DNA from: Bacteroidota bacterium
GTDB taxonomy: Bacteria > Bacteroidota > Bacteroidia > Chitinophagales > UBA10324
DNA: 33,834 bases
Direction of reading: 5' to 3'
NCBI GenBank assembly: GCA_014190575.1
Contig: BJGQ01000037.1
Location: 1 to 33,834, forward strand
Position numbers and translations under genes: made by a program. The notes below the pieces were generated by a model. It did not search any database. It saw only the letters and a program-made list of their open reading frames with translations, and was not told the DNA's origin. Positions 8,373 through 20,255 of the stretch are shown here, one piece after another (the stretch's first letter is position 1; the number at the start of each line of letters is the position of its first letter).

Positions 8373-11300
8373 CTACTTACTGATGTTTACGCGGCTGGTA
8401 AAGGTGGTTTTTTCGCCTACCATTACTCGTACCATGTAATTTCCTGAAGTAATGCTGCTTGGCATTCCTACATTCTCAGTTAAGTGTCCGCCACTGATTG
8501 AAGTGATTTGTGTTTGAACTATTTGTCCTAACATGTTCATCACTTCTATCCGTACATCCTGTGTGCTTACATCACCCATTTGAAGGTCAATGTTAAACTC
8601 ACCGGCGTTTGGATTCGGGAACAAGCTTAATGTTCCGTTCTCGGTGGTTATTCCGGTGTTGTTCAGGCTTTCTTCTGTTTGCTGATCTTCTTCGCGGCAA
8701 CCAACACTTAAGGTGGTAACAGATTGTATATCCGATGCCGGTCCGAATGACCCGTTACATGAGTTAGCTCTTACATATACCTGAATCACGGTGCCTGATG
8801 CGAATATGTTTGCCGATTTTACATTGGTCGTACTTGGGTATCCGCTCCATTGTGATGTGCCTGGTTTTACCCATACTGTGTAACCCACCAAGTTTGTTGA
8901 TGGTATTCCACAATCTCCTACATTCCAGGTGGCTGTTAAGCTATGACAGGTTGCGTGACTCAATACTAAGTTCTGTATCTTGTTACAGCCGCCTTTCACT
9001 TGTACCTGAACTACCTGGGTCATTATTGAATATGGAATTCCGTATGATGGTCCACAGGTCGATACTGCATATACTTCCCATACTTGTGGTAATGGTGTAT
9101 TCAATACAGTAAAGTTCATTGATGTTCCGGTTACATTGTAGGTAATTGGTGCCGATACGGTTGGTAACACTCTGCGGAAGGTTACACGGTAGGTGTTAGA
9201 TGTGTTACCACCTAATGCTACTGTGATGCGGTTCGGACAGGTTGATGTTACTTCGTTCGTTGTGAATGGTGTTGGTGTTGGGCATGTGCTGGTTCCAGGT
9301 AATAAGTATTGTACTACTGCTGGTCCTGCTTGTCCGTATTGTCCTACTGATGGACAGTTACATGCCTGTAAGTAAACTGATACTGCTGCTCCGGGGTAAG
9401 TGGTTGATGTAATAGTGTAAGTACTTCCGCCTGCTAAACATGCACTTGGTGGTCCGTAACTATTAGAGATCTGCAACAATTTGTAGTACACTACATAGGA
9501 TGTAGCTCCTGCAGGTATGTTCACGATTGCTGATGTAGCTGTGATGGTACCAAAAGTTGGTGCCGGTGGTGCCGCACACAATGTTTTAGCAGTAGCTGTT
9601 CCTACGCTTACACCTGCACATGCTGCCGGGTTAGTTAAGGTAACGGTTACTGACAAGTTTGTGTTTGGTGTTAATCCGATTAAGGTTACAGGTGGAGTTG
9701 CATTGGCTGTACTTCCTGATCCTGCGCCTGTCCATGATATACTGTAGCTTCCGCCGCCTGCTGGTGTCCAGTTTACAACTGCTGATGTTGCAGTTAAAGT
9801 TGCTGCCGGAATAGTTACCAAAGGAGTAGATGCAATATCAACGATTGCTGTGTTGGATGAAATATCATAGCAAATTGCTGATTTTGACAGTAAGCGATAG
9901 TACTTTTTGGTTGTTCCGTTTGCACCTGTAGTGGTATAACTTAAACCGCTTGTTGCTCCCGAAATATCAGCCCATGTAATGTTATCACTTGAAATCTGCC
10001 ACTGGTAGGCTCCTGCTGCTCCGGTTACTGTTAACAATTTAACACCACCTGAACAAATGATTGAACTGGTTGGAGTTACTGTTCCTGCTAATGGAGTAGT
10101 TGCTACCGGTACCACATTGTATGAGGTACAACCACTTGCTAAAGTACCTGTTACTGTAAAGAACACATTACTTGGTGTTGATGTAGATACAGTTACAGTA
10201 GCTGCTGTTCCATTTGTAGGATTCATTACAACACCGTTAACACCATTGGTTGGGTTCCACTGCCAGCCGGTTACTACACCGGGGCCTGTGCCGTTCAACA
10301 CTGCTGTTTGTCCGGTACATACTGCTGCTGCAGGGTTAACATCCAGGAATGGATTCTCATCAATGTACAAAGTGTACTCTTCAATCTCTCCCCAGGTACG
10401 GGCACCGGTGATGGCACCAAAACAAGGATCAACATTCGGTGTGCCTGCAAAAGTATTCATCACGCGCATAACGGCCGGGCCGACATACGATGTTCCGCAT
10501 GGAATGGTGATGATTCCTGCAGGATGTAAACCGGTAGATCCAGCATCAGAATAAACTGATTCAGCTGCTGTTAATATTCCGTCGCCATCCATGTCAATCC
10601 AAACACGAACTCCTTCTGTATAGAGAGTAGAAACTCCTACCTGGAATGCGTATGGTACTTGTCTTGATACATGGTATGGTCCGTTTGCAAGGTAATTCTG
10701 GTAACCATCCAATGTAGCATCGTGTGTAGCAGGCCAAACTCCCTGGTTATTATCCAGAATGGTTGTAACGAACCCTGCTGTACCTAAACGAACACGGGCG
10801 ATATCATCGTTATCGTTCGTATTGTTAATACATGATTGTGCACAATTTAATTTAACAAAATCAGAATTTGAGTACGCTACAGGGCAACCGCCGTTCTGGT
10901 ACTTACCACGAACATACACATAACCTGTTGGAACTGCAGGATTAACATTCGCAATGAAGGTTCCCAAATAGTTAGCTAAGGTATTATTCGGTGGCAAGAA
11001 ATCATAAGGTGCTGTCCAGTCAATTTCGTAACCGGTTAAAGTACCGGTTGCTGCAGTATTGTCCATGTTAATGTCAATGAAATCATTGGCAACAGTTAAC
11101 TGCGGAGTAATACCGGCAAGGAAACCGGCCTGTGTTGCACCGATACAAGCATTTGCTATGATGTTCATTGCATAGTCTTCAGACTCGCCCTGAACATAGT
11201 TAGGTGCGGTTCCCAAACATGGGTCGAGCACTGTAGATACATTACTGATACGAACACGCATGCGCGTGGTTCCGATTGTAGCTGCAACCGGTACATTCAC

Positions 11301-14291
11301 AAAGTGATAGGTGAAGGCTCCTGCGGAGTTCGTTACAATACTTGTTTGTGCTTCACCAGCATCTACAAAGTCTCCATCGGAGTTAAAGTCAAACCATACA
11401 GTTACTGTTTTAGTTACAGCGGCTGTTCCGGTTTTTACAACTACCCAGTATGGTGCACCGGCCATCATAACACCGGCTGCTACTGTTGATGTGAAATCAC
11501 TATAATATGGCGATACCGCATTTGCACCTGATTGGTGGGCGATACCTCCGTTTTCAACCGACACACTATCAATAAATACACCTGATGATGTACCTACTGT
11601 ATGTGATGGCGCGCAATAACAAAGTACTGCTGATAATGACAGGCAAGTTGAATACGCTGAATCACCATAAGGCAGGTTAGACAAAGTACATTTCATTTTA
11701 CGACGGAAAACAGTTGTTGCTGCTCCCGGGAAAATGTAGGTTTGACTTGGTGATGTTCCAAGGTTGGTCCAAGGACCGGCACATGAAGCAGCTTTTTCCC
11801 ACCGGTAAGTCATACCTCCCAATCCGGTGGTTGCACCTGAAACTGAAAGTGTGATAGGCAATCCTGAACATGGTGTTGGATCTGATGTGTTGGTGGTTCC
11901 TGGTGTAGGAACTCCGGCACAATCAGGCAATGTATTAATGGTTACCTGGTAATCTTCAGTTTCACCGTAAGTGTAAGTAGCGCATGAGCTCATGTTTGTG
12001 GTGAAATAAGAACAACGGAATCGAACGCGAGTAACAAAGGTAGCAGGCATGCCCGGGAAGGTAACATTGGTAGGGCAGGTAAATGCTGCTGTACCTGTTG
12101 CTCCTCCATTTATTAACCATGTTCCCCCAGGATAGGCCTGATCACTTAAACATTCACTGGCATTGAAAATACCATCCTGATCAAAATCAACCCATACACG
12201 GAAGTTTTCCGCATAGATCGGATTGTTGTTCAAAGTAATGTTGTAAGCTGATCCCTTATCTAAAGTGGTAATTGAACCAGGAGTGTAGTAGTACCAAGGC
12301 TGCACATTCGGTGGGTTTGCCCCTGTAACAGGACCGGTGTAACCGGCGAAGTCAACGATTTGATTTAAGTAGTCACCACCACCGTTCACATTACCTGTGC
12401 TGTATGATGGAGTGCAATAACAGTTACCAGGAATATCTCCTGCTACCGTTACGGCTGCTGAGTTGGTTGTTTGTGAACTGAAACCGCAAACAACGCGTAA
12501 ACGGAAATCACATGTACTGCTGTATGGCAAACCGAATACTGTAGTAATTATGTTATTGGGAGTTGCAGCGATAACTCCACTATTCACACCAATGTTTGTC
12601 CATCCTAATGAATTGTAATTTTCTTCCCACTGGTAAGTAACGGTAGTACCATTGGTTGGTGCTGTAGTTGTTCCCAATGTAAAGTAGTTCAAATAGCAAA
12701 CAGGTGTTGCACTTGTTGTTGCAGTTGTTCCTGCTGATGGTACTCCTAAGCAGCTTGTTGTTGCAATGATTTGTGCAGCATAATCTTCAGTTTCTCCCCA
12801 AGTGAAGTTAGTACAAGCAGAAAGAGCAGGGTATGATGCTGGTGTGCTTTCAATACATCTAACACGCAAACGGGTAAATCCAGGGGTGGCAGTTAAAGGT
12901 ACAATGAATGATCCGGTTTCAATATGAGGTCCAACTGTATTTGCTAAAGGTTGGTAAACCTGTTCGCCTGGATCGTTAAAGTCACCATCAATGTTGTAAT
13001 CAATGTACATCTGCATGAAGTTACCGAAGTTTCCGCCGCAGGTGATTGAAGTTAACGAGAAAGTAGCTGTAGTTGTTTGTTCCAACTGAACAGCTGCAAG
13101 GTTAGTGTAGTTTGAATACAAAAATGCAACAGAGTTAGGCGAAGTACCTAAACCTCCAGCACCGCAAATAGATGTGTTATTAAGTGTGGTATTGTTTGCA
13201 ATGGTTACATTTCCAAGGTCTTCATCCGCTGTTGAAGTAGCAGCTCCGGCACCTACTGTTGGCGCCTGAAGGCCTCCGCAATAACAGTTAGCCGATACAT
13301 TCATGTTTACTGTAACAGTATTTGAAATACTGCTTAAGCCCGACGCATTACAAATGGTGTAAAGACGGTAGCAGCACTGAGCAGCTTGTGTAAATGAGCC
13401 TGATGCAGGTGTTGTTTGACCGGCAACATTGCCCCATGTGCCTAAGCAGCCCGGGTCTGATTGCCATTGGTAAACTATGTTACTAACACCAGATGTATAA
13501 CCGGTTGCAGTGATTGTAAATGCGGCTGCAGGACATGCTGCTGCAGGACCAGTGGCTACAGGAGTATTTGGTGTTCCTGAGCATGGCGTTGGTGGTGTCC
13601 AGGTAAATGTTTGACCCAGAGCCGGCTTAATGGCTGCACTGATTGAACAGGTAGCAGTATTTACTGCACCTGCTGTTGTTGCTGCCCAGTTTGTAGTGGT
13701 TGTACGGATATTAAAATCAGTAGCCAAAGTTCCACGCAAACCAGCACGGCGGGTACTGGTGATGGAAGGGGTGAATGTTCCATAAACTATTTGAACAACA
13801 TTTGTTGTTTCAAATAATTGTAATTGGAAATTGTATTCATTCAATCCACCGGAGAAGGTTCCCCAGTTTTTATATTGAACTGTAAAAATACGGCTACCAA
13901 CAGCACCTGTGGTTTGGTATTCAATATCATGACCAACAGCATTACCATAAAGATCGGCATTCAATAACGCAATGTTATTGGCTGGTCCTGAAGATATAGA
14001 GGTATAAGAAATGGTTGAAACCGCTCCCATTCTAACATACCCATTGGCGCTACAACCCACTTGAGTATAAGCAACACCATTGTAAGTAAATGTAAAACCA
14101 ATTGGTATCAACGCAAAGTTGTTATCATCAGCTGCACCAGTTGAACCGGCTACTACTGTTCCAACAATAGGCGTGTATGTACCGGCAGAAGAAGCAAAAC
14201 CATAAGCACTCACCTGAGCGCTCGATCTTGTTGTTGCGAATACCGTGAGCATCAGCAGCACGGCTAAGCATTTTGTGTATATTCTATTCAT
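8373..14291 (-). CDS. Giant secreted GEVED/Ig-like modular protein with T9SS type A sorting domain
   Basis: This 1972-residue secreted protein has a Sec signal peptide (about residues 1-25, cut before QVSAYG). An N-terminal beta-rich domain spans about 27-235. Then Ig-like units (starting C-x-G-x-P, e.g. CLGVPSAGTT) alternate with GEVED modules. Four GEVED units end near residues 503, 780, 1038 and 1302 at WGETEDY, YGETEDY, GESEDY and WGEIEEY. Each carries a D-x-[DN]-x-D-G calcium-loop-like motif (YNIDGDFND, FDQDGIFN, FNSDGDFVD, MDGDGIL). Several modules open with a CYC motif. Ig- and fibronectin III-like repeats fill about 1308-1870. A T9SS type A domain (SLFPNPNAGEF to the C-terminal SRVNISK) ends the protein. 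It is probably anchored on or released from the surface; adhesion is a guess. It is the second gene of an operon. Confidence 0.93.
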   Translation of the reverse strand: MNRIYTKCLAVLLMLTVFATTRSSAQVSAYGFASSAGTYTPIVGTVVAGSTGAADDNNFALIPIGFTFTYNGVAYTQVGCSANGYVRMGAVSTISYTSISSGPANNIALLNADLYGNAVGHDIEYQTTGAVGSRIFTVQYKNWGTFSGGLNEYNFQLQLFETTNVVQIVYGTFTPSITSTRRAGLRGTLATDFNIRTTTTNWAATTAGAVNTATCSISAAIKPALGQTFTWTPPTPCSGTPNTPVATGPAAACPAAAFTITATGYTSGVSNIVYQWQSDPGCLGTWGNVAGQTTPASGSFTQAAQCCYRLYTICNASGLSSISNTVTVNMNVSANCYCGGLQAPTVGAGAATSTADEDLGNVTIANNTTLNNTSICGAGGLGTSPNSVAFLYSNYTNLAAVQLEQTTTATFSLTSITCGGNFGNFMQMYIDYNIDGDFNDPGEQVYQPLANTVGPHIETGSFIVPLTATPGFTRLRVRCIESTPASYPALSACTNFTWGETEDYAAQIIATTSCLGVPSAGTTATTSATPVCYLNYFTLGTTTAPTNGTTVTYQWEENYNSLGWTNIGVNSGVIAATPNNIITTVFGLPYSSTCDFRLRVVCGFSSQTTNSAAVTVAGDIPGNCYCTPSYSTGNVNGGGDYLNQIVDFAGYTGPVTGANPPNVQPWYYYTPGSITTLDKGSAYNITLNNNPIYAENFRVWVDFDQDGIFNASECLSDQAYPGGTWLINGGATGTAAFTCPTNVTFPGMPATFVTRVRFRCSYFTTNMSSCATYTYGETEDYQVTINTLPDCAGVPTPGTTNTSDPTPCSGLPITLSVSGATTGLGGMTYRWEKAASCAGPWTNLGTSPSQTYIFPGAATTVFRRKMKCTLSNLPYGDSAYSTCLSLSAVLCYCAPSHTVGTSSGVFIDSVSVENGGIAHQSGANAVSPYYSDFTSTVAAGVMMAGAPYWVVVKTGTAAVTKTVTVWFDFNSDGDFVDAGEAQTSIVTNSAGAFTYHFVNVPVAATIGTTRMRVRISNVSTVLDPCLGTAPNYVQGESEDYAMNIIANACIGATQAGFLAGITPQLTVANDFIDINMDNTAATGTLTGYEIDWTAPYDFLPPNNTLANYLGTFIANVNPAVPTGYVYVRGKYQNGGCPVAYSNSDFVKLNCAQSCINNTNDNDDIARVRLGTAGFVTTILDNNQGVWPATHDATLDGYQNYLANGPYHVSRQVPYAFQVGVSTLYTEGVRVWIDMDGDGILTAAESVYSDAGSTGLHPAGIITIPCGTSYVGPAVMRVMNTFAGTPNVDPCFGAITGARTWGEIEEYTLYIDENPFLDVNPAAAVCTGQTAVLNGTGPGVVTGWQWNPTNGVNGVVMNPTNGTAATVTVSTSTPSNVFFTVTGTLASGCTSYNVVPVATTPLAGTVTPTSSIICSGGVKLLTVTGAAGAYQWQISSDNITWADISGATSGLSYTTTGANGTTKKYYRLLSKSAICYDISSNTAIVDIASTPLVTIPAATLTATSAVVNWTPAGGGSYSISWTGAGSGSTANATPPVTLIGLTPNTNLSVTVTLTNPAACAGVSVGTATAKTLCAAPPAPTFGTITATSAIVNIPAGATSYVVYYKLLQISNSYGPPSACLAGGSTYTITSTTYPGAAVSVYLQACNCPSVGQYGQAGPAVVQYLLPGTSTCPTPTPFTTNEVTSTCPNRITVALGGNTSNTYRVTFRRVLPTVSAPITYNVTGTSMNFTVLNTPLPQVWEVYAVSTCGPSYGIPYSIMTQVVQVQVKGGCNKIQNLVLSHATCHSLTATWNVGDCGIPSTNLVGYTVWVKPGTSQWSGYPSTTNVKSANIFASGTVIQVYVRANSCNGSFGPASDIQSVTTLSVGCREEDQQTEESLNNTGITTENGTLSLFPNPNAGEFNIDLQMGDVSTQDVRIEVMNMLGQIVQTQITSISGGHLTENVGMPSSITSGNYMVRVMVGEKTTFTSRVNISK

Positions 14292-14302
14292 GATGGTTTG
14301 GT

Positions 14303-14791
14303 TTATTTGTTATCCAACGATTGGCGGATTGCCTTTTGTTGAGCGTTATAATAATTGGTTTTATACGCTGCTTCGTAATTACCTTCATTTGCATAAGCGA
14401 GTTCATCGGCGGTCATGAATTTTTCAAAAACCGGATTTACTTTCATCCACTTAACATAGTTGGTAATGTACTGGTCCATGTCGGTTCCTATTTCAACCGA
14501 AGTATTAATTACCGGTTTAATAACAACACTTACAACTGATTCTTGTCCCGGTACGATGGTCGTAACCGTTACATTTCCATTTTCATCAACCACTGACTGG
14601 CCGCTTTCAGTTTTGAAAGCACCGCCATTGCCACCGGCTGGTGTTTGCATGAATTGGTACTTGGTACCATCTGTTGTCTGCGTCTGTTTGTTCGTGTTTT
14701 CTGATGATTGAGCAGATACCTGATTGCTCATAGAAAAGCTCAACAACAGAATAACTAAAACAGCAGCAGCTTTAAAAAACTTTTGTTTCAT
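14303..14791 (-). CDS. Small secreted protein of unknown function upstream of the giant T9SS protein
   Basis: This 162-residue protein has a clear signal peptide (MKQKFFKAAAVLVILLLSFS, cut after SAQ-like VSAQ near residue 28). The mature part starts with a Gln/Thr/Asn-rich low-complexity stretch. It then has a beta-like segment with VVDENGNVTVTTIV, and ends in a charged helical tail. It has no lipobox, no cysteine in the mature part and no T9SS sorting domain, so it should be periplasmic unless another route is used. I recognise no family. It ends 11 bp before the giant protein start codon, so it is probably the first gene of that operon and may be an accessory or chaperone-like partner; this is inference from position only. 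Confidence 0.85.
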   Translation of the reverse strand: MKQKFFKAAAVLVILLLSFSMSNQVSAQSSENTNKQTQTTDGTKYQFMQTPAGGNGGAFKTESGQSVVDENGNVTVTTIVPGQESVVSVVIKPVINTSVEIGTDMDQYITNYVKWMKVNPVFEKFMTADELAYANEGNYEAAYKTNYYNAQQKAIRQSLDNK

Positions 14792-15026
14792 AAGCTTTGT
14801 TTTTGTTTTGAAATTTGGTTTGATTGGTTTTAAAAAAAATGAATTAGTGAGAAGGACAATTAAATAACCAATAGAATTGATTGGTTAAATTTTTCGTGGT
14901 AGAGGTAACTGTTGTCCCGGCAGTTGACCCTTAGTTATTGCTTTGTAAATGGTTTTTTCATAGGCGTTTTTTTATTTGCGGATTTAAAAAAACCAATATA
15001 AAACCTGTTCTAAAAGAAATATTTGG

Positions 15027-15057
15027 CAAGCGGTAATGTTATTTGACGAGTGGAAAT
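15027..15057 (-). promoter_or_regulatory. Candidate LytTR operator copy A, upstream of the giant-protein operon
   Basis: The 31-bp segment begins CAAGCGGTA and ends GGAAAT. It matches the segment at 17678-17708 over most of its length: nine identical bases at the left, a shared TTATT core, a shared CGA-x-T and a shared GAAAT end, allowing small gaps. It lies 236 bp upstream of the start of the small secreted protein gene, in the same orientation relative to that gene as copy B is to the LytTR gene. Binding by a LytTR protein is inference. Confidence 0.45.
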
Positions 15058-15162
15058 ACTTCACTCATTTTTTTTACAGCTCAGGCAACGATACAGTTTT
15101 TCATTGGGAAAACAAAAATTTACACTGCGAAAAACAATTTTACATTTTAATTCAAGATACTC

Positions 15163-15201
15163 TCGAACAAAAAAAACAGCAGTAAATTATTCTGCTTTTT
15201 T
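15163..15201 (-). terminator. Small terminator-like stem downstream of a gene remnant
   Basis: AGCAG at 15178-15182 pairs with CTGCT at 15192-15196, flanked by an A-rich run on the left and TTTTTT on the right. It could work on either strand. On the minus strand it follows the stop codon of the decayed frame ending at 15237, as expected for the terminator of a lost gene. Confidence 0.45.
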
Positions 15202-15236
15202 GCGAACAACCAATTACATCAAGTGCTAAAAACTAA

Positions 15237-15430
15237 TTACCGTGGCACACACTCCGCTACATTACCTAGAATGCTTTCACCTGCTGTGCTAACTATAGTG
15301 ATGCGAATGGGTTCTTGAATCCTGTCACCAACCCTGCAAAAAATATATTTACGCTTACCAGAGAATACGATGAGGTGTAAGAAACATCAGAGCCGGCAAC
15401 CGCTGTCATGTAAACATTGTAAAAAATCAG
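15237..15430 (-). pseudogene. Possible decayed remnant of a minus-strand gene
   Basis: In this AT-rich spacer one G+C-richer stretch reads like protein on the minus strand in two overlapping frames. One frame gives TAVAGSDVSYTSSYS and continues to a stop at 15293. Another gives KYIFCRVGDRIQEPIR and RITIVSTAGESILGNVAE and stops with TAA at 15237. A single frameshift around 15335-15375 would join the two. There is no usable start codon. A terminator-like stem lies just downstream. I recognise no family; it may be the C-terminal end of a secreted or surface protein. Chance open frames remain possible. Confidence 0.4.
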
Positions 15431-15655
15431 ATGGACAAAATAAAGCAATAAGAAAAAATATGACTGCGAATATTGCCTAACAATTCAAGCGGCTATTCTG
15501 AAAAAATTAAACCACATAATCGGGCACATTTTTTTTCTATAAAAACCGTTTGTCAAAAAAATAAACCTTTACAAACTATTTTAAATTTATTTATACCATC
15601 AACGGTGCATTTTAAACCTTCTATTAATGCTTAACCTCCTGATAAAAAAAATAAT

Positions 15656-17110
15656 TTGACTCAGAAAAATTCTTCTTCAACCTACTTTCCAAATGTAAAA
15701 ATCGGCATTGCATTGAGCCTGATTTTTATTGCGCTCACTGTTATATCCATTCTGTTATTTGAAACTATAACCGGTACAAAAAAATACAACACCAAAATAA
15801 AATACATTCTTGAAAAAAAACTGGCGATTCAGGAAATAAAAACCGGATCCATTGAATTGGAAACTGATTCACGCGGTTTTGCCATTACAGGCGATGAACA
15901 TTTACTTGCGCATTACAATACTTTAATCAGTATAATTAATAATGATTTTACTTACCTGAAAACAGGGAAAGCAAATAACGACAGCATAAGCGATAAATTA
16001 AAAGAACTTGAAAACCTGTTTCAAAAAAAAACAGTGCAAACAGCAAAAACAATTGAACTGCGCCGTTCAAAAGGTTTGGATGCAGACCTGATGAGTATTT
16101 CAACCGACGAAGAAAAAAAGATTGCAGAAAAAATTGTATTCGTTATTGACAAAATTATGGAGTACCAGAATAATTTATTAAAAAACACAAAAAACAAACA
16201 GCAAAAATTATTAAATCAATATCAAACAATACTGGTTATTTTTATTATCATACTTATAATTTCTATCGTTTCAGTCTATTTTATACTCCGTATTAATTTT
16301 AAGAGGCTCCGGGACATGAATGATGAATTATTTAATTCAACTCTTTTCCTGACTTCAGTTTTAGATAATATACCAAACATGGTTTTTATAAAAGATGCAA
16401 AAGAACTGCGCTTTGTAAGACTTAATAAAGCAGGTGAAAAACTATTGGGCTATTCGAGCGATGCGATGATTGGAAAAAATGATTATGATTTTTTTCCGAA
16501 AGCACAAGCCGATTTCTTTATTACGAAAGACCTTGAAGTGTTGAGTTCAAAAGAAGCGATTGACATTAAAGAAGAACAGATTGAAACAGTAACTGGCAAA
16601 CGCTGGCTTCATACAAAAAAAATTAGCCTTACAGACGAACAAGGAAGGCCAGCCTACCTGCTCGGCATTTCGGAAGACATTACCGAACAAAAAATACACG
16701 AGGAAAAAGAAAAACAACGAGGGATAGAAATTTATGAACTGTTTAACAATGCACCCTGTGGTTATATCACCACAAACAAAGCAGGAATTATCACAGAGAT
16801 TAATAACACTTTATTAAAGTGGTTAGGCTACTCACGCCACGAAGTAGTTAACAGTTTGTTGGGCAGTCAAATAATTACAGATGATAGTTATGAAATATTC
16901 TCCTATTATTTCATCGGCTTCAGAACAGGCGAATTAAAATCAATACGCGATTTCGAAATGAGATTTAAACGAAAAGATGGCAGTTCTTTTCCCGTACAAA
17001 TCAGCGGACAGCCTGAATTTGATAAAGATGGAAATTATTTCAGAACAAAATTAACCGTGGTAGATATAACAGAACAGAAAAAAGATAAAATGAACATAAT
17101 AAAAAACTAA
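15656..17110 (+). CDS. CHASE3-PAS-PAS membrane sensor protein lacking an output domain
   Basis: The 484-residue protein begins with a TTG, the only start between an in-frame upstream stop and the first membrane helix. Helix 1 is at about residues 15-36. An extracytoplasmic helical CHASE3-like region follows at about 37-180, with the typical TDSRGFAITGDEHLLAHY. Helix 2 is at about 190-212. Two PAS domains with PAC tails follow: about 232-345 (ending GISEDITEQK) and about 360-478 (ending VVDITEQK). The protein then stops. Sensor kinases of this layout normally continue into HisKA and HATPase domains, which are absent here. It faces two LytTR genes. It could sense a ligand and signal by protein contact, or be a truncated kinase. 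Confidence 0.88.
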   Translation: MTQKNSSSTYFPNVKIGIALSLIFIALTVISILLFETITGTKKYNTKIKYILEKKLAIQEIKTGSIELETDSRGFAITGDEHLLAHYNTLISIINNDFTYLKTGKANNDSISDKLKELENLFQKKTVQTAKTIELRRSKGLDADLMSISTDEEKKIAEKIVFVIDKIMEYQNNLLKNTKNKQQKLLNQYQTILVIFIIILIISIVSVYFILRINFKRLRDMNDELFNSTLFLTSVLDNIPNMVFIKDAKELRFVRLNKAGEKLLGYSSDAMIGKNDYDFFPKAQADFFITKDLEVLSSKEAIDIKEEQIETVTGKRWLHTKKISLTDEQGRPAYLLGISEDITEQKIHEEKEKQRGIEIYELFNNAPCGYITTNKAGIITEINNTLLKWLGYSRHEVVNSLLGSQIITDDSYEIFSYYFIGFRTGELKSIRDFEMRFKRKDGSSFPVQISGQPEFDKDGNYFRTKLTVVDITEQKKDKMNIIKN

Positions 17111-17143
17111 AAGAAAGTGACTTCAGGAATAATATTTCAATAA

Positions 17144-17593
17144 TTATTTATCCAGCAGATGATGCAGTTTGGATTTGACTTCTGCCATATTTCTTCGTGA
17201 AAATTCCAGTACAACATTACCTTTCATTAGCAGTTTGCGCTCATGCAGATTAATTATTTTTTCAACCTGAAAAATATTAATAAGCTGTGAACGATGCGCA
17301 CGCATAAACATATTTTTATCCATTTGCTTCTGATGATAGTTCAGGTTTCGTGAACTCACAATCTGTCGGCCGTTTTCTAAATGAAAAATACTGTATGCTT
17401 TCTGCGCTTCTACCCGCACCACCTGATTTTCCGGAATAATAACTTCGCCCGTTTTAAAAGTACGAAGCATAATTGTTTTGTTGCCTCTTAGTTCATCGCG
17501 TAACTCCTTTAAAACTTCTACATCAATATCTGATGAATTCAACACATACTCTGTAATTTTATTTTTAATGACATCCGTTTTCATAAAAAACAT
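17144..17593 (-). CDS. LytTR-domain DNA-binding regulator without receiver domain (1)
   Basis: The 149-residue protein has an N-terminal extension of about 40 residues, predicted helical, and a C-terminal LytTR domain at about 42-147. The domain shows the typical core with QKAYSIFHLENGRQIV, MFMRAHRSQLINI and the final basic strand. There is no response-regulator receiver domain with phospho-acceptor Asp, so control must come from another input such as ligand, partner or expression level. The start is ATG at 17593; ATG three codons later is an alternative. The gene converges with the PAS sensor, whose stop codon lies 33 bp away, and is preceded by a motif also found upstream of the giant secreted protein operon. 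Confidence 0.9.
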   Translation of the reverse strand: MFFMKTDVIKNKITEYVLNSSDIDVEVLKELRDELRGNKTIMLRTFKTGEVIIPENQVVRVEAQKAYSIFHLENGRQIVSSRNLNYHQKQMDKNMFMRAHRSQLINIFQVEKIINLHERKLLMKGNVVLEFSRRNMAEVKSKLHHLLDK

Positions 17594-17677
17594 TTAATTC
17601 CAATGCGATATTATGCTATTTTCTCCATACAAAAATGACAAATGCCACAAACAACCTTTGTTATCAACAAAACTTTA

Positions 17678-17708
17678 CAAGCGGTATTTTTATTGCCGAA
17701 TATGAAAT
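17678..17708 (-). promoter_or_regulatory. Candidate LytTR operator copy B, upstream of LytTR gene 1
   Basis: The 31-bp segment begins CAAGCGGTATTTTTATTGCC and ends GAAAT. It is centred about 100 bp upstream of the ATG of the LytTR gene at 17144-17593, and its left part is also an imperfect palindrome (CGGTA...TTGCCG). It closely resembles copy A at 15027-15057. A role in autoregulation is inferred. Confidence 0.45.
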
Positions 17709-17751
17709 TCATATAATCGTTTCTAAACAATCAGTGCAGGTAAATAAATAA

Positions 17752-18204
17752 TTAATTGGAAGAATGAATTGTTGATTTCAATTTTTCAGAAATCAATTTT
17801 TCATATCGTTTCAGGATTGGAATTTTTTCATTGTTCCTGAGCACTACCCAACTAAGGAAATCTGAATCAATTTTTTCAATGTATAATTGATTAACAAGAT
17901 AACTCTGATGAACCCGAATGAATACTTTATTCTTTAGTAATTTTTGATAAAAGGAAATACCTCTTCGGTGCATTTTTACAGTACCATTAATCAGGTGAAT
18001 GAAACAATTACTTTTAATGGAATGTATATAAATAATGTCGTTCAGTTTTATTTCTGAACCGCCCTCACGCCATGAATGAATTATTATGGTTTGATCTCCC
18101 TTTTTGTTAAACAATGAAATCATATCAATTGCAGCTTCGGTTTCCTTAGCGGCAAATTCTTTCAACTCGTTACATAAAATTAATTTATCATTAATTTTTA
18201 GCAT
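17752..18204 (-). CDS. LytTR-domain DNA-binding regulator without receiver domain (2)
   Basis: The start chosen is ATG at 18204 (MLKINDKLILCNELKEF), giving 150 residues; TTG and GTG codons seven and six codons upstream are less likely. After a helical N-terminal part of about 40 residues comes a LytTR domain with IIYIHSIKSNCFIHLINGTV, KVFIRVHQSYLVNQLYIEKI and a basic C-terminal end. Like its neighbour it has no receiver domain. The two proteins share layout but differ clearly in sequence, so they are old paralogues rather than a recent duplication. It lies 158 bp upstream of LytTR gene 1 on the same strand. It diverges from the TPR membrane protein gene over a spacer of 188 bp. Confidence 0.88.
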   Translation of the reverse strand: MLKINDKLILCNELKEFAAKETEAAIDMISLFNKKGDQTIIIHSWREGGSEIKLNDIIYIHSIKSNCFIHLINGTVKMHRRGISFYQKLLKNKVFIRVHQSYLVNQLYIEKIDSDFLSWVVLRNNEKIPILKRYEKLISEKLKSTIHSSN

Positions 18205-18392
18205 CGGTAATTTTATTAGCACCAAACCTATAACAAATATTTATTATTCAAATTTTGTGGCAAAATATATTTTCAACACCTTTATTTTTATTTAATATTC
18301 TGAATTTATTTTTTTAACGATAAAAGGTTTTAAAATTTCAATAATAGAATTGGTTTTTACATTTATCCGTTGAAAATAAATTTTAAAAAAAG

Positions 18393-20255
18393 GTGAGTAA
18401 AAAAAAGATAGTTGAGAAAATATTTTCGATTAGTCGTGCTCATCAGCTCATTCTTTTTCTCATTCCTTTCTTTTTGTTTTTACAAACCTGCTGGTTCAAT
18501 TTTACCAATCACGATGATGATACCATTGTGCTGAACAATGGTCAGGTATTTCAGCATTTTAATTTGAAAAAAATATTTTTTACTGATGCGTGGCTGATGG
18601 ATAAAAAAATAGAACTGTATCGTCCGTTTCAATCATTCACTTACGCCATTGATTATTTTTTTTCGGGAACAAATGCATTCGGCTATCACCTGCACAATGT
18701 TTTAATTTTTTGTTTGAGCATTCAGTTGCTTTATCTTTTTCTGCTGAGTTTAAAACTGACCGAGCATGCTTCATTTTTTCTTTCGCTTATTTTTTCTGTT
18801 CATTTTTTATTTGCACACACCGTAAGTTGGATTCCTGCACGAGGTGATTTGTATTTGTTTGCGTTTAGTGTAACAGTGCTGTTGTTATTCTTTCTGTTTC
18901 TGAAAAAACAAAATATCATCTACAGCATTGGTGTTGCTGCATTTTATTTTCTGGCTATGCTATCCAAGGAAAGCGCCATTGTGTTATTACCCGTAATTTA
19001 TTTTACAGCCTATTTATTCTGGCAACCTGATTTTAAAAAATTAAATGTGTGGCTGCCTGCTATGTTTTCTATTCCATTCATACTAATTTATTTATGGATG
19101 AGGCAACAATCTATCAGTCCGATAGTTAATGTTTTTACTGTTGACGGATTTATATATAACCTGCCCATCATCCCTGAATCTGTATTTAAATTTTTTGTAC
19201 CGATTGGTTTTTCAGTAATGCCTGCTTTCAGTTTAACTGCCACGATTGGTGGTGCTGTTATAATCGTTTTGCTTTCGATTGCAGTTTTTATTTACAGAGA
19301 AAAAATAAACCGCCAATTGGTTTTTGCGGGTGTCGTGTTTTTTCTTTTGCCTGTGTTACCCTCCGTAATTTATAAACCTGCGTTTACAGGTTTTGCTTAT
19401 GATTATTTAGATCACCGGCTATTTTTTCCGGGTATCGGATTGTTGCTGATTGGTTATGCAATTTTTAATGTGGTTGTAAAAAAACAATTTACTGTAACAG
19501 TTTTTTATGCTGTTGTTTTAGTGCTGTCAGTTATAACATTTGTTAATGCAACGAATTATAAAAACTACGAGTCGTATTATGAAAATGCAATTGCCACCAA
19601 TCCCAAATCGGGATTGGCTCATTCCAATTACGGAGCTTCGTTAGCGAGAGAAAATAAGTATGATCGAGCGCTGATACAATTTAATGAAGCTGTAACACTT
19701 TCGCCCGATAACATCGAAGTGCGAATGAAACTGGCTGATTCTTATCTGTACTTAAAAAATTATCCGAAGATGATTGAGCAATGCAATGCGGTAATAAAAA
19801 TCAATCCTAAGTTTGCAAAGTCCTATTTTAACATTGCGCTTTATTATGCTGATAAAAAGAAATTCAGTGAAGCGGAAATGTCTGTTTCAAAAGCAATAGA
19901 AGCAGATAGCGCTGATGCTGATGCATTCTTGTATCAAGGATTATTATTTGAAACAGAAAATAAAACTGACACTGCTTTGCTTTCATTTAAAAAATCAATC
20001 CGTTTAAATCCTCTGCTTGCACTTTCTTATTTCAGAATGGGAATAATCAATGGAAACAAAAGTTTATTTAAAGAAGCACTCGACAATTTTGATCAATATG
20101 TTAAACTGAATCCGAATGATGGCAATGGATATTTTTATCGCGGTCAGGCATATTGCATGACCGGAAATATCGGAACGGGATGTGCAGATTTACACATTGC
20201 TGATAAAATGGGTGTTTCTGAAGCTAGAGGGAAAATTTCTTACTGGTGTAAGTAA
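18393..20255 (+). CDS. TMTC-like GT-C family membrane protein with TPR domain
   Basis: The 620-residue protein starts at GTG. It has about ten to twelve membrane helices in residues 20-395, then six tetratricopeptide repeats of 34 residues at about 401-604. The first extracytoplasmic loop has FTNHDDDTIVLNN, then LYRPFQSFTYAIDYFFSG, GYHLHNVLIF and VSWIPARGDLYLFAFS. These are hallmarks of the GT-C glycosyltransferases related to O-mannosyltransferases (TMTC/DUF1736 type), where the acidic pair binds the metal/lipid-linked donor. It probably transfers a sugar from a polyprenyl carrier to a protein or glycan on the periplasmic side; the substrate is unknown. Its neighbours are mostly secreted or envelope proteins. 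Confidence 0.85.
   Translation: MSKKKIVEKIFSISRAHQLILFLIPFFLFLQTCWFNFTNHDDDTIVLNNGQVFQHFNLKKIFFTDAWLMDKKIELYRPFQSFTYAIDYFFSGTNAFGYHLHNVLIFCLSIQLLYLFLLSLKLTEHASFFLSLIFSVHFLFAHTVSWIPARGDLYLFAFSVTVLLLFFLFLKKQNIIYSIGVAAFYFLAMLSKESAIVLLPVIYFTAYLFWQPDFKKLNVWLPAMFSIPFILIYLWMRQQSISPIVNVFTVDGFIYNLPIIPESVFKFFVPIGFSVMPAFSLTATIGGAVIIVLLSIAVFIYREKINRQLVFAGVVFFLLPVLPSVIYKPAFTGFAYDYLDHRLFFPGIGLLLIGYAIFNVVVKKQFTVTVFYAVVLVLSVITFVNATNYKNYESYYENAIATNPKSGLAHSNYGASLARENKYDRALIQFNEAVTLSPDNIEVRMKLADSYLYLKNYPKMIEQCNAVIKINPKFAKSYFNIALYYADKKKFSEAEMSVSKAIEADSADADAFLYQGLLFETENKTDTALLSFKKSIRLNPLLALSYFRMGIINGNKSLFKEALDNFDQYVKLNPNDGNGYFYRGQAYCMTGNIGTGCADLHIADKMGVSEARGKISYWCK

What the first reader, a model, noticed from the sequence alone, without database searches (positions are those of the whole stretch)
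15027..17708. A shared ~31-bp motif links the giant T9SS operon promoter and the LytTR gene promoter
The segments 15027-15057 and 17678-17708 share CAAGCGGTA, a TTATT core, CGA-x-T and GAAAT in the same order, separated by 2.6 kb. Both lie upstream of minus-strand genes in the same orientation: one before the small-protein/giant-protein operon, the other before LytTR gene 1. LytTR proteins bind paired short sites, so this may be an operator by which a lone LytTR controls its own gene and the giant surface protein. No other gene start in the window shows an obvious copy.
Basis: partly seen in the sequence, partly recalled or inferred. Interest (0 to 1): 0.62.

Follow-up and report, generated by a model that had tools for sequence, protein, structure and literature searches.

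The report
Paired LytTR-type operator before giant operon
The shared motif is best read as a pair of direct repeats, shaped like known LytTR-regulator binding sites, in front of a giant secreted-protein operon and preserved in a related species; the copy in front of the LytTR gene is only a probable half site.

Summary
Both segments exist as described, apart from CGA, which is one base out of register. Read along transcription, the giant-operon copy is a direct repeat, TCCACTCGTCAAATA-N5-ACCGCTTGCCAAATA (15054-15020, minus strand, period 20). A relative (G001) keeps it at 29 of 35 positions before the orthologous operon, at the same 73 nt from an upstream ORF. The layout fits published LytTR sites and the half sites resemble those of E. 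coli BtsR/YehT. The copy before LytTR gene 1 is weaker: one half site (17685-17671), no clear partner. A model trained only on giant-operon sites gives two hits in its own 3.19-Mb genome, the training site and this spacer, the latter at E 0.5. LytTR1 orthologues keep ACC-C--GTA-A-T-TTGT there, without a pair. So the operator is likely real, control by LytTR1 plausible, autoregulation unproven. G004 has a related site before its equivalent operon but no LytTR1, which counts against a strict one-regulator model. More novel is a leader (upstream ORF plus hairpin) between operator and gene, found at E <= 1 in 16 genomes only before this operon type.

The parts
15020..15054 (-). paired direct-repeat operator (left half 15054-15040 TCCACTCGTCAAATA, right half 15034-15020 ACCGCTTGCCAAATA, period 20)
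   Evidence: conserved in G001:C330:2162-2196; 11 of 15 identities between halves in both species; joint repeat reached by 2 of 1000 column shuffles
17671..17705 (-). probable single half site before LytTR1 (17685-17671 ACCGCTTGTAAAGTT); the left part 17705-17691 is degenerate
   Evidence: E 0.5, only other hit in genome; diverged context shared by the 3 spacers aligned
17144..17584 (-). LytTR gene 1 (LytTR1): LytTR domain only, no receiver found; start taken at the MKT shared with orthologues, ORF open to 17593
   Evidence: Pfam LytTR 48.4 bits over cut-off 22.6; orthologues 77% and 75% in G001, G003
17752..18225 (-). LytTR gene 2 (LytTR2); true start uncertain
   Evidence: Pfam LytTR 53.8 bits; 47% identical to the G003 neighbour L044:4311-4760
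15656..17110 (+). CHASE3-PAS-PAS protein with no kinase domain found, convergent with LytTR1
   Evidence: a similar ORF is the neighbour in G001 and G003 (by reading)
14303..14791 (-). small 162-aa protein with a signal-peptide-like start (by eye), first gene of the operon
   Evidence: no Pfam or NCBIfam family over cut-off
8373..14291 (-). giant 1972-aa GEVED protein with T9SS type A sorting domain
   Evidence: GEVED 3.4e-52, Por_Secre_tail over cut-off
14886..14965 (-). conserved leader: 8-codon upstream ORF MKKPFTKQ (14961-14935) and hairpin (14929-14904)

Best explanation
The element at 15054-15020 is a two-half-site operator for a LytTR-type regulator, placed upstream of the promoter of the small/giant secreted-protein operon. 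Two regulator molecules would bind the two direct repeats on one face of the helix, about two turns apart, and activate transcription. The most likely regulator is LytTR1 (17144-17584), and a single half site in LytTR1's own spacer probably lets it adjust its own expression. Shown: the repeat, its conservation and spacing in G001, its rarity, and the LytTR genes next to it. Inferred: that a LytTR protein binds, which one, where the promoter lies, that the effect is activation, and autoregulation.
For: Published LytTR sites are two direct or inverse repeats of 9-11 nt with 11-13 nt between them, and the YehT (BtsR) oligo from the yjiY promoter holds ACCGCTTA-N13-ACCACTCA (PMC4847170, passages). 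The window pair matches those two half sites at 13 of 16 positions; 6 of 270452 placements in the window (both strands, periods 19-22, the site itself included) do as well. The halves agree at 11 of 15 in G000 and in G001, and the joint repeat is reached by 2 of 1000 column shuffles. Site identity to G001 is 29 of 35; of ten 25-column blocks upstream of it seven are at 0.28-0.48, one at 0.68 and two gapped ones at 0-0.2, and the block just downstream is at 0.36. The right half starts 73 nt before the leader ORF in both. A second G001 small/giant operon (C63) carries a period-20 pair, ACCGTTTG and TGCGCTTG. Model R1, built from those three, finds in G000 only the training site and the LytTR1 spacer; in G004 its only hit (E 0.68) is before a small/giant operon that, as in the window, lies beside a TPR gene (71% identical). 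LytTR1 is rare: at E <= 1e-30 4 of 396 sampled genomes of the order match, namely G000, G001, G003 and a 48% relative with a stop in G007. Both genomes with the well-formed pair have LytTR1.
Against: Taken alone, the repeat is not unusual: in the G000 spacer the best repeat (12 of 15, reached by 127 of 1000 shuffles) is not even the site (11 of 15), and in G001 11 of 15 is reached by 539 of 1000. The leader downstream is mostly more conserved than the site (blocks 0.64-1.0). The LytTR1 spacer hit has E 0.5; seven other R1 hits lie elsewhere, most of similar score. R1 has no hit in G003, which has LytTR1, and the LytTR1 spacers of G001 and G003 score no better than their surroundings with the half-site matrix. 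G004 has a related site but no LytTR1 orthologue. Three of seven small/giant operons (G001:C105, G005:C19, G006:C5) show no paired site, though G006 has one half site (ACCACTCGTCGGTTA, 13.2). LytTR1 is 18% identical to BtsR. The comparison with BtsR was chosen after seeing the site.
Confidence: 0.5

Rival explanations
1. The giant-operon site is a real operator, but the resemblance in the LytTR1 spacer is chance, so the two promoters are not co-regulated through this motif.
For: Only one half site there; E 0.5; 21 of 31 identity is reached by 197 of 500 shuffled pairs; orthologous spacers lack a scoring half site.
Against: It is the only non-training hit of R1 in a 3.19-Mb genome and falls in a LytTR spacer 2.6 kb away; a diverged half-site context ACC-C--GTA-A-T-TTGT is shared by the 3 LytTR1 spacers aligned.
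Confidence: 0.3
2. The operator belongs to another regulator: LytTR2, a LytTR paralogue elsewhere in the genome, or a non-LytTR protein.
For: 11 LytTR matches in G000; G004 has a related site but no LytTR1 orthologue; in G003 LytTR1 is last in a LytTR2 - OmpR-type regulator - histidine kinase - LytTR1 row.
Against: Repeat length, spacing and half-site letters fit LytTR sites; both genomes with the well-formed pair have LytTR1 at the locus.
Confidence: 0.2
3. The block is part of the core promoter or another generally conserved upstream stretch, not an operator.
For: It lies 73 nt upstream of the leader ORF in both species; CTTG could serve as a -33 TTG, though G001 has CTCG there.
Against: By eye no TAnnTTTG follows at the usual distance (the consensus and distance are recalled, one search shows only that papers hold the string); the block is rare in the genome, unlike a core promoter.
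Confidence: 0.1

Closest known systems
YehT/BtsR site in the E. coli yjiY promoter
   Same: Two direct half sites ACCGCTTA and ACCACTCA about two helix turns apart; LytTR regulator (oligo in PMC4847170, passages)
   Different: Period 20 here against 21; last base G here against A; the half sites extend into CAAATA; both candidate regulators lack a receiver domain; no binding shown
LytTR operators in general (YpdB; VirR and AgrA named in the same paper)
   Same: Two repeats of 9-11 nt with 11-13 nt spacer, as PMC4847170 states (passages)
   Different: Target is a T9SS-sorted giant GEVED operon; sequence differs, and the paper says LytTR sites share no common consensus
Leader-peptide / attenuator leaders (recalled)
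   Same: Short upstream ORF followed by an RNA hairpin before the first gene
   Different: No terminator-antiterminator pair looked for or identified; no Rfam match up to E 5 in 14200-18500

Membership tests
LytTR-type operator (giant-operon site) | two direct or inverse repeats of 9-11 nt separated by 11-13 nt | tested here: met
   period 20 in G000 and G001, i.e. 11 nt apart if counted as 9-nt repeats; definition from PMC4847170 passages
LytTR-type operator (LytTR1 spacer copy) | second repeat at the proper distance | tested here: not met
   only 17685-17671 scores as a half; left part is degenerate; no pair in the two orthologous spacers
LytTR-type operator | bound by a LytTR protein | not testable with these tools
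   needs gel shift or footprint
YehT/BtsR binding site | ACC(G/A)CT(C/T)A twice, N13 between | tested here: not met
   13 of 16 core positions, final A is G in both halves, first half starts TCC, spacer one base shorter; the degenerate string is recalled, the oligo seen
LytTR protein family (LytTR1, LytTR2) | LytTR domain over Pfam cut-off | tested here: met
   48.4 and 53.8 bits against 22.6
LytTR response regulators | N-terminal receiver domain | tested here: not met
   no receiver family at E 0.001 in either protein (149 and 157 aa)
Known RNA families (leader) | Rfam match | tested here: not met
   0 matches up to E 5 in 14200-18500

The most novel reading that the evidence does not exclude
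Giant T9SS-sorted operons of this genus are controlled in two layers: a LytTR-type paired operator sets initiation, and a new leader made of a short ORF (MKKxxTxx-stop in four operons) plus hairpin adjusts expression afterwards, a leader tied to this operon type alone.
Probability: 0.3. Interest if true: 0.55.

Novelty: new member of a known kind. Interest (0 to 1): 0.4.

Why it matters
LytTR-like genes match in 6 of 6 genomes of this genus, but in the held library I found no paper on LytTR binding sites in Bacteroidota (0 papers with 'LytTR', 'Bacteroidetes', 'direct repeat' and 'binding site'; 23 papers, 15 listed, titles and abstract starts seen) or linking LytTR to T9SS cargo control (4 papers, titles and abstract starts only). 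A predicted operator with a named candidate regulator makes control of giant secreted proteins directly testable, and the leader offers a second handle.

Tried and rejected
A third site before the PAS/CHASE3 gene (15545): not supported, not seen by eye in G001 or in the short stretch held of G003. The same motif before other LytTR genes: not seen by eye in the spacers printed; one LytTR group (L026-L030) has its own upstream string instead. Motif before every small/giant operon: rejected, 3 of 7 lack the pair, one of these (G006) with a single half site; an eighth small-protein match (G011:C41, E 0.07) was left out of the seven because no giant ORF follows it in the stretch held and it looks like a different protein. 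Solved-structure search with the LytTR1 profile: 0 hits at E 0.01. Wider orthologues: the genome-contig scan gave the G001 and G003 contigs and a weak Flavobacterium hit; 396 sampled order genomes gave none beyond G000, G001, G003 and G007 at E <= 1e-30, at most 10 candidates scored per genome in the rows shown. RNA folding of the whole leader is not stronger than shuffles (z 0.33). A background list still held duplicates of the training loci; it was replaced and not used. A distance printed for LytTR1 used a wrong start base and is not used.

Full report
The window is contig C37 of an unnamed 3.19-Mb genome (G000). On the minus strand lie a 162-aa small protein and a 1972-aa GEVED protein with a T9SS sorting tail. 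Further on come a plus-strand CHASE3-PAS-PAS gene and two minus-strand genes with a LytTR domain and no receiver, LytTR1 and LytTR2.

Observation. Both 31-base strings are there and agree at 21 of 31. Pattern counts in window and genome are low, but the pattern was made from the two copies. An unbiased comparison of the spacers is modest: best ungapped score reached by 6 of 500 shuffled pairs, 21 of 31 identity by 197 of 500. The best segment is 83 bases long on the same diagonal and holds only the first 17 bases of the motif. The link therefore needs outside evidence.

Giant-operon site. Aligned with the orthologous spacer in G001:C330, the segment reads TCCACTyGTCAAATA-N5-ACCGCTyGCCAAATA, period 20, 29 of 35 identical. 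Of ten 25-column blocks upstream seven are at 0.28-0.48, one at 0.68 and two gapped ones at 0-0.2; the block just downstream is at 0.36; the leader beyond is at 0.64-1.0, mostly more conserved than the site. Within each genome the repeat alone is not rare: the G000 spacer's best repeat is 12 of 15 at another place (127 of 1000 shuffles), and 11 of 15 in G001 is reached by 539 of 1000; the same repeat in both aligned sequences is rare (2 of 1000 column shuffles). The right half starts 73 nt before the leader ORF in both. A pattern made from the two, at up to 3 mismatches, occurs once in G000, once in G001 and in none of the other four genomes of the genus held. A second G001 operon (C63) has a period-20 pair whose right half starts 195 nt before its leader ORF; G004 has the right half at 193 nt with a poor left half.

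What kind of site. PMC4847170 (passages) states that LytTR sites are two direct or inverse repeats of 9-11 nt with 11-13 nt between; the site fits. Its YehT (BtsR) oligo holds ACCGCTTA-N13-ACCACTCA; the window pair matches at 13 of 16 core positions, as do 6 of 270452 placements in the window, the site included (the comparison was chosen after seeing the site). It is not a BtsR site: the last base and the spacer differ.

LytTR1 spacer. R1, built from the three giant-operon sites, was run on six genomes and gave 13 matches at E up to 10; 150 of 360-558 first-look candidates were scored per genome, so the scan is not exhaustive. Three are the training sites. Of the other ten, one is the LytTR1 spacer (E 0.5, the only other hit in G000), one lies before the G004 small/giant operon (E 0.68, that genome's only hit), one is in the intergenic part of the G001 locus (E 2), and seven lie elsewhere (E 0.285-6.8). 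All seven overlap a mechanically listed ORF of 80 aa or more; so does the G004 hit, an 89-aa ORF on the other strand. A matrix from the two G001 sites alone ranks the operator first (29.9) and the LytTR1 spacer second (13.4; next 11.9) in the window. Orthologous LytTR1 spacers keep ACC-C--GTA-A-T-TTGT but score no better than surroundings. I rate this half site as probable, not shown.

Which regulator. LytTR1 orthologues occur in G001 and G003 (77%, 75%). Among 396 sampled genomes of the order only G000, G001, G003 and a 48% relative with a stop in G007 match at E <= 1e-30. In G003 LytTR2 (47% identical to the window's), a receiver/Trans_reg_C regulator, a histidine kinase and LytTR1 lie in one row on one strand. 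G000 has no close copy of that kinase (best 32%), so the row has shrunk there or grown in the others. G004 carries a small/giant operon beside the same TPR gene (71% identical) and a related site with no LytTR1, so a paralogue may serve there.

Small/giant operons. Seven were compared: G000, three in G001, G004, G005, G006 (an eighth match, G011, was left out). The giant ORF is complete, and was tested for GEVED and sorting tail, only in G000 and G004; in the others a long ORF follows and runs off the stretch or contig. The pair is in three (the training set), a weaker form in G004, none in three, of which G006 has one half site.

Leader. Between operator and small gene lies a block conserved in three loci, with an 8-codon ORF MKKxxTxx-stop at -167 to -170 in four of seven operons. 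In the three it is followed by a hairpin: of nine predicted pairs two show changes on both sides and two are broken in one sequence each; the covariation term for the whole fold is +0.22, so it gives no net support. Model R2, built from those three, finds at E <= 1 in 16 genomes only them plus two held-out loci, G004 (E 0.03) and G005 (E 0.22), both before small/giant operons (up to 150 candidates scored per genome). The G004 match does not form the model's stem at four pairs, and G005 lacks the early stop. Whole-leader folding is no better than shuffles. What is firmly conserved is thus GCCTATGAAAAAA and its surroundings; ORF and hairpin are the likely meaning.

Verdict. A LytTR-type operator before the giant operon is the best reading (about 0.5 for the full statement with LytTR1). 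It is a new member of a known kind.

Noticed in passing
window 14886-14965 minus; L043 2027-2107; L061 1330-1408; L085 15321-15397; L091 1197-1274: Conserved leader before small/giant operons: GCCTATGAAAAAA, an 8-codon ORF in 4 of 7 operons, then a hairpin in three; R2 finds it at E <= 1 in 16 genomes only before this operon type.
   Followed up: partly
L026-L030, upstream of LytTR paralogues: A different string, about ACCGATAATAAAAATTGTTTATTAAA, precedes one LytTR group in five genomes (by eye); possibly its own operator.
   Followed up: no
L044 1660-4760 against window 17144-18225: G003 has LytTR2 - OmpR-type regulator - histidine kinase - LytTR1 in a row; in the window the two middle genes are missing and no close kinase copy is found.
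   Followed up: partly
L043 4103-4143: ACCGCTTGTCAAATG half site in an intergenic stretch of the G001 locus before a polyketide-cyclase-like gene (below Pfam cut-off), opposite orientation.
   Followed up: no
L087 239-1251 (G007): Two tandem LytTR genes; the second is the only match to the LytTR1 profile outside the genus at E <= 1e-30 and carries a stop.
   Followed up: no
L090 2245-2259 (G006): Single half site ACCACTCGTCGGTTA on the coding strand upstream of the small/giant operon of another genus.
   Followed up: no
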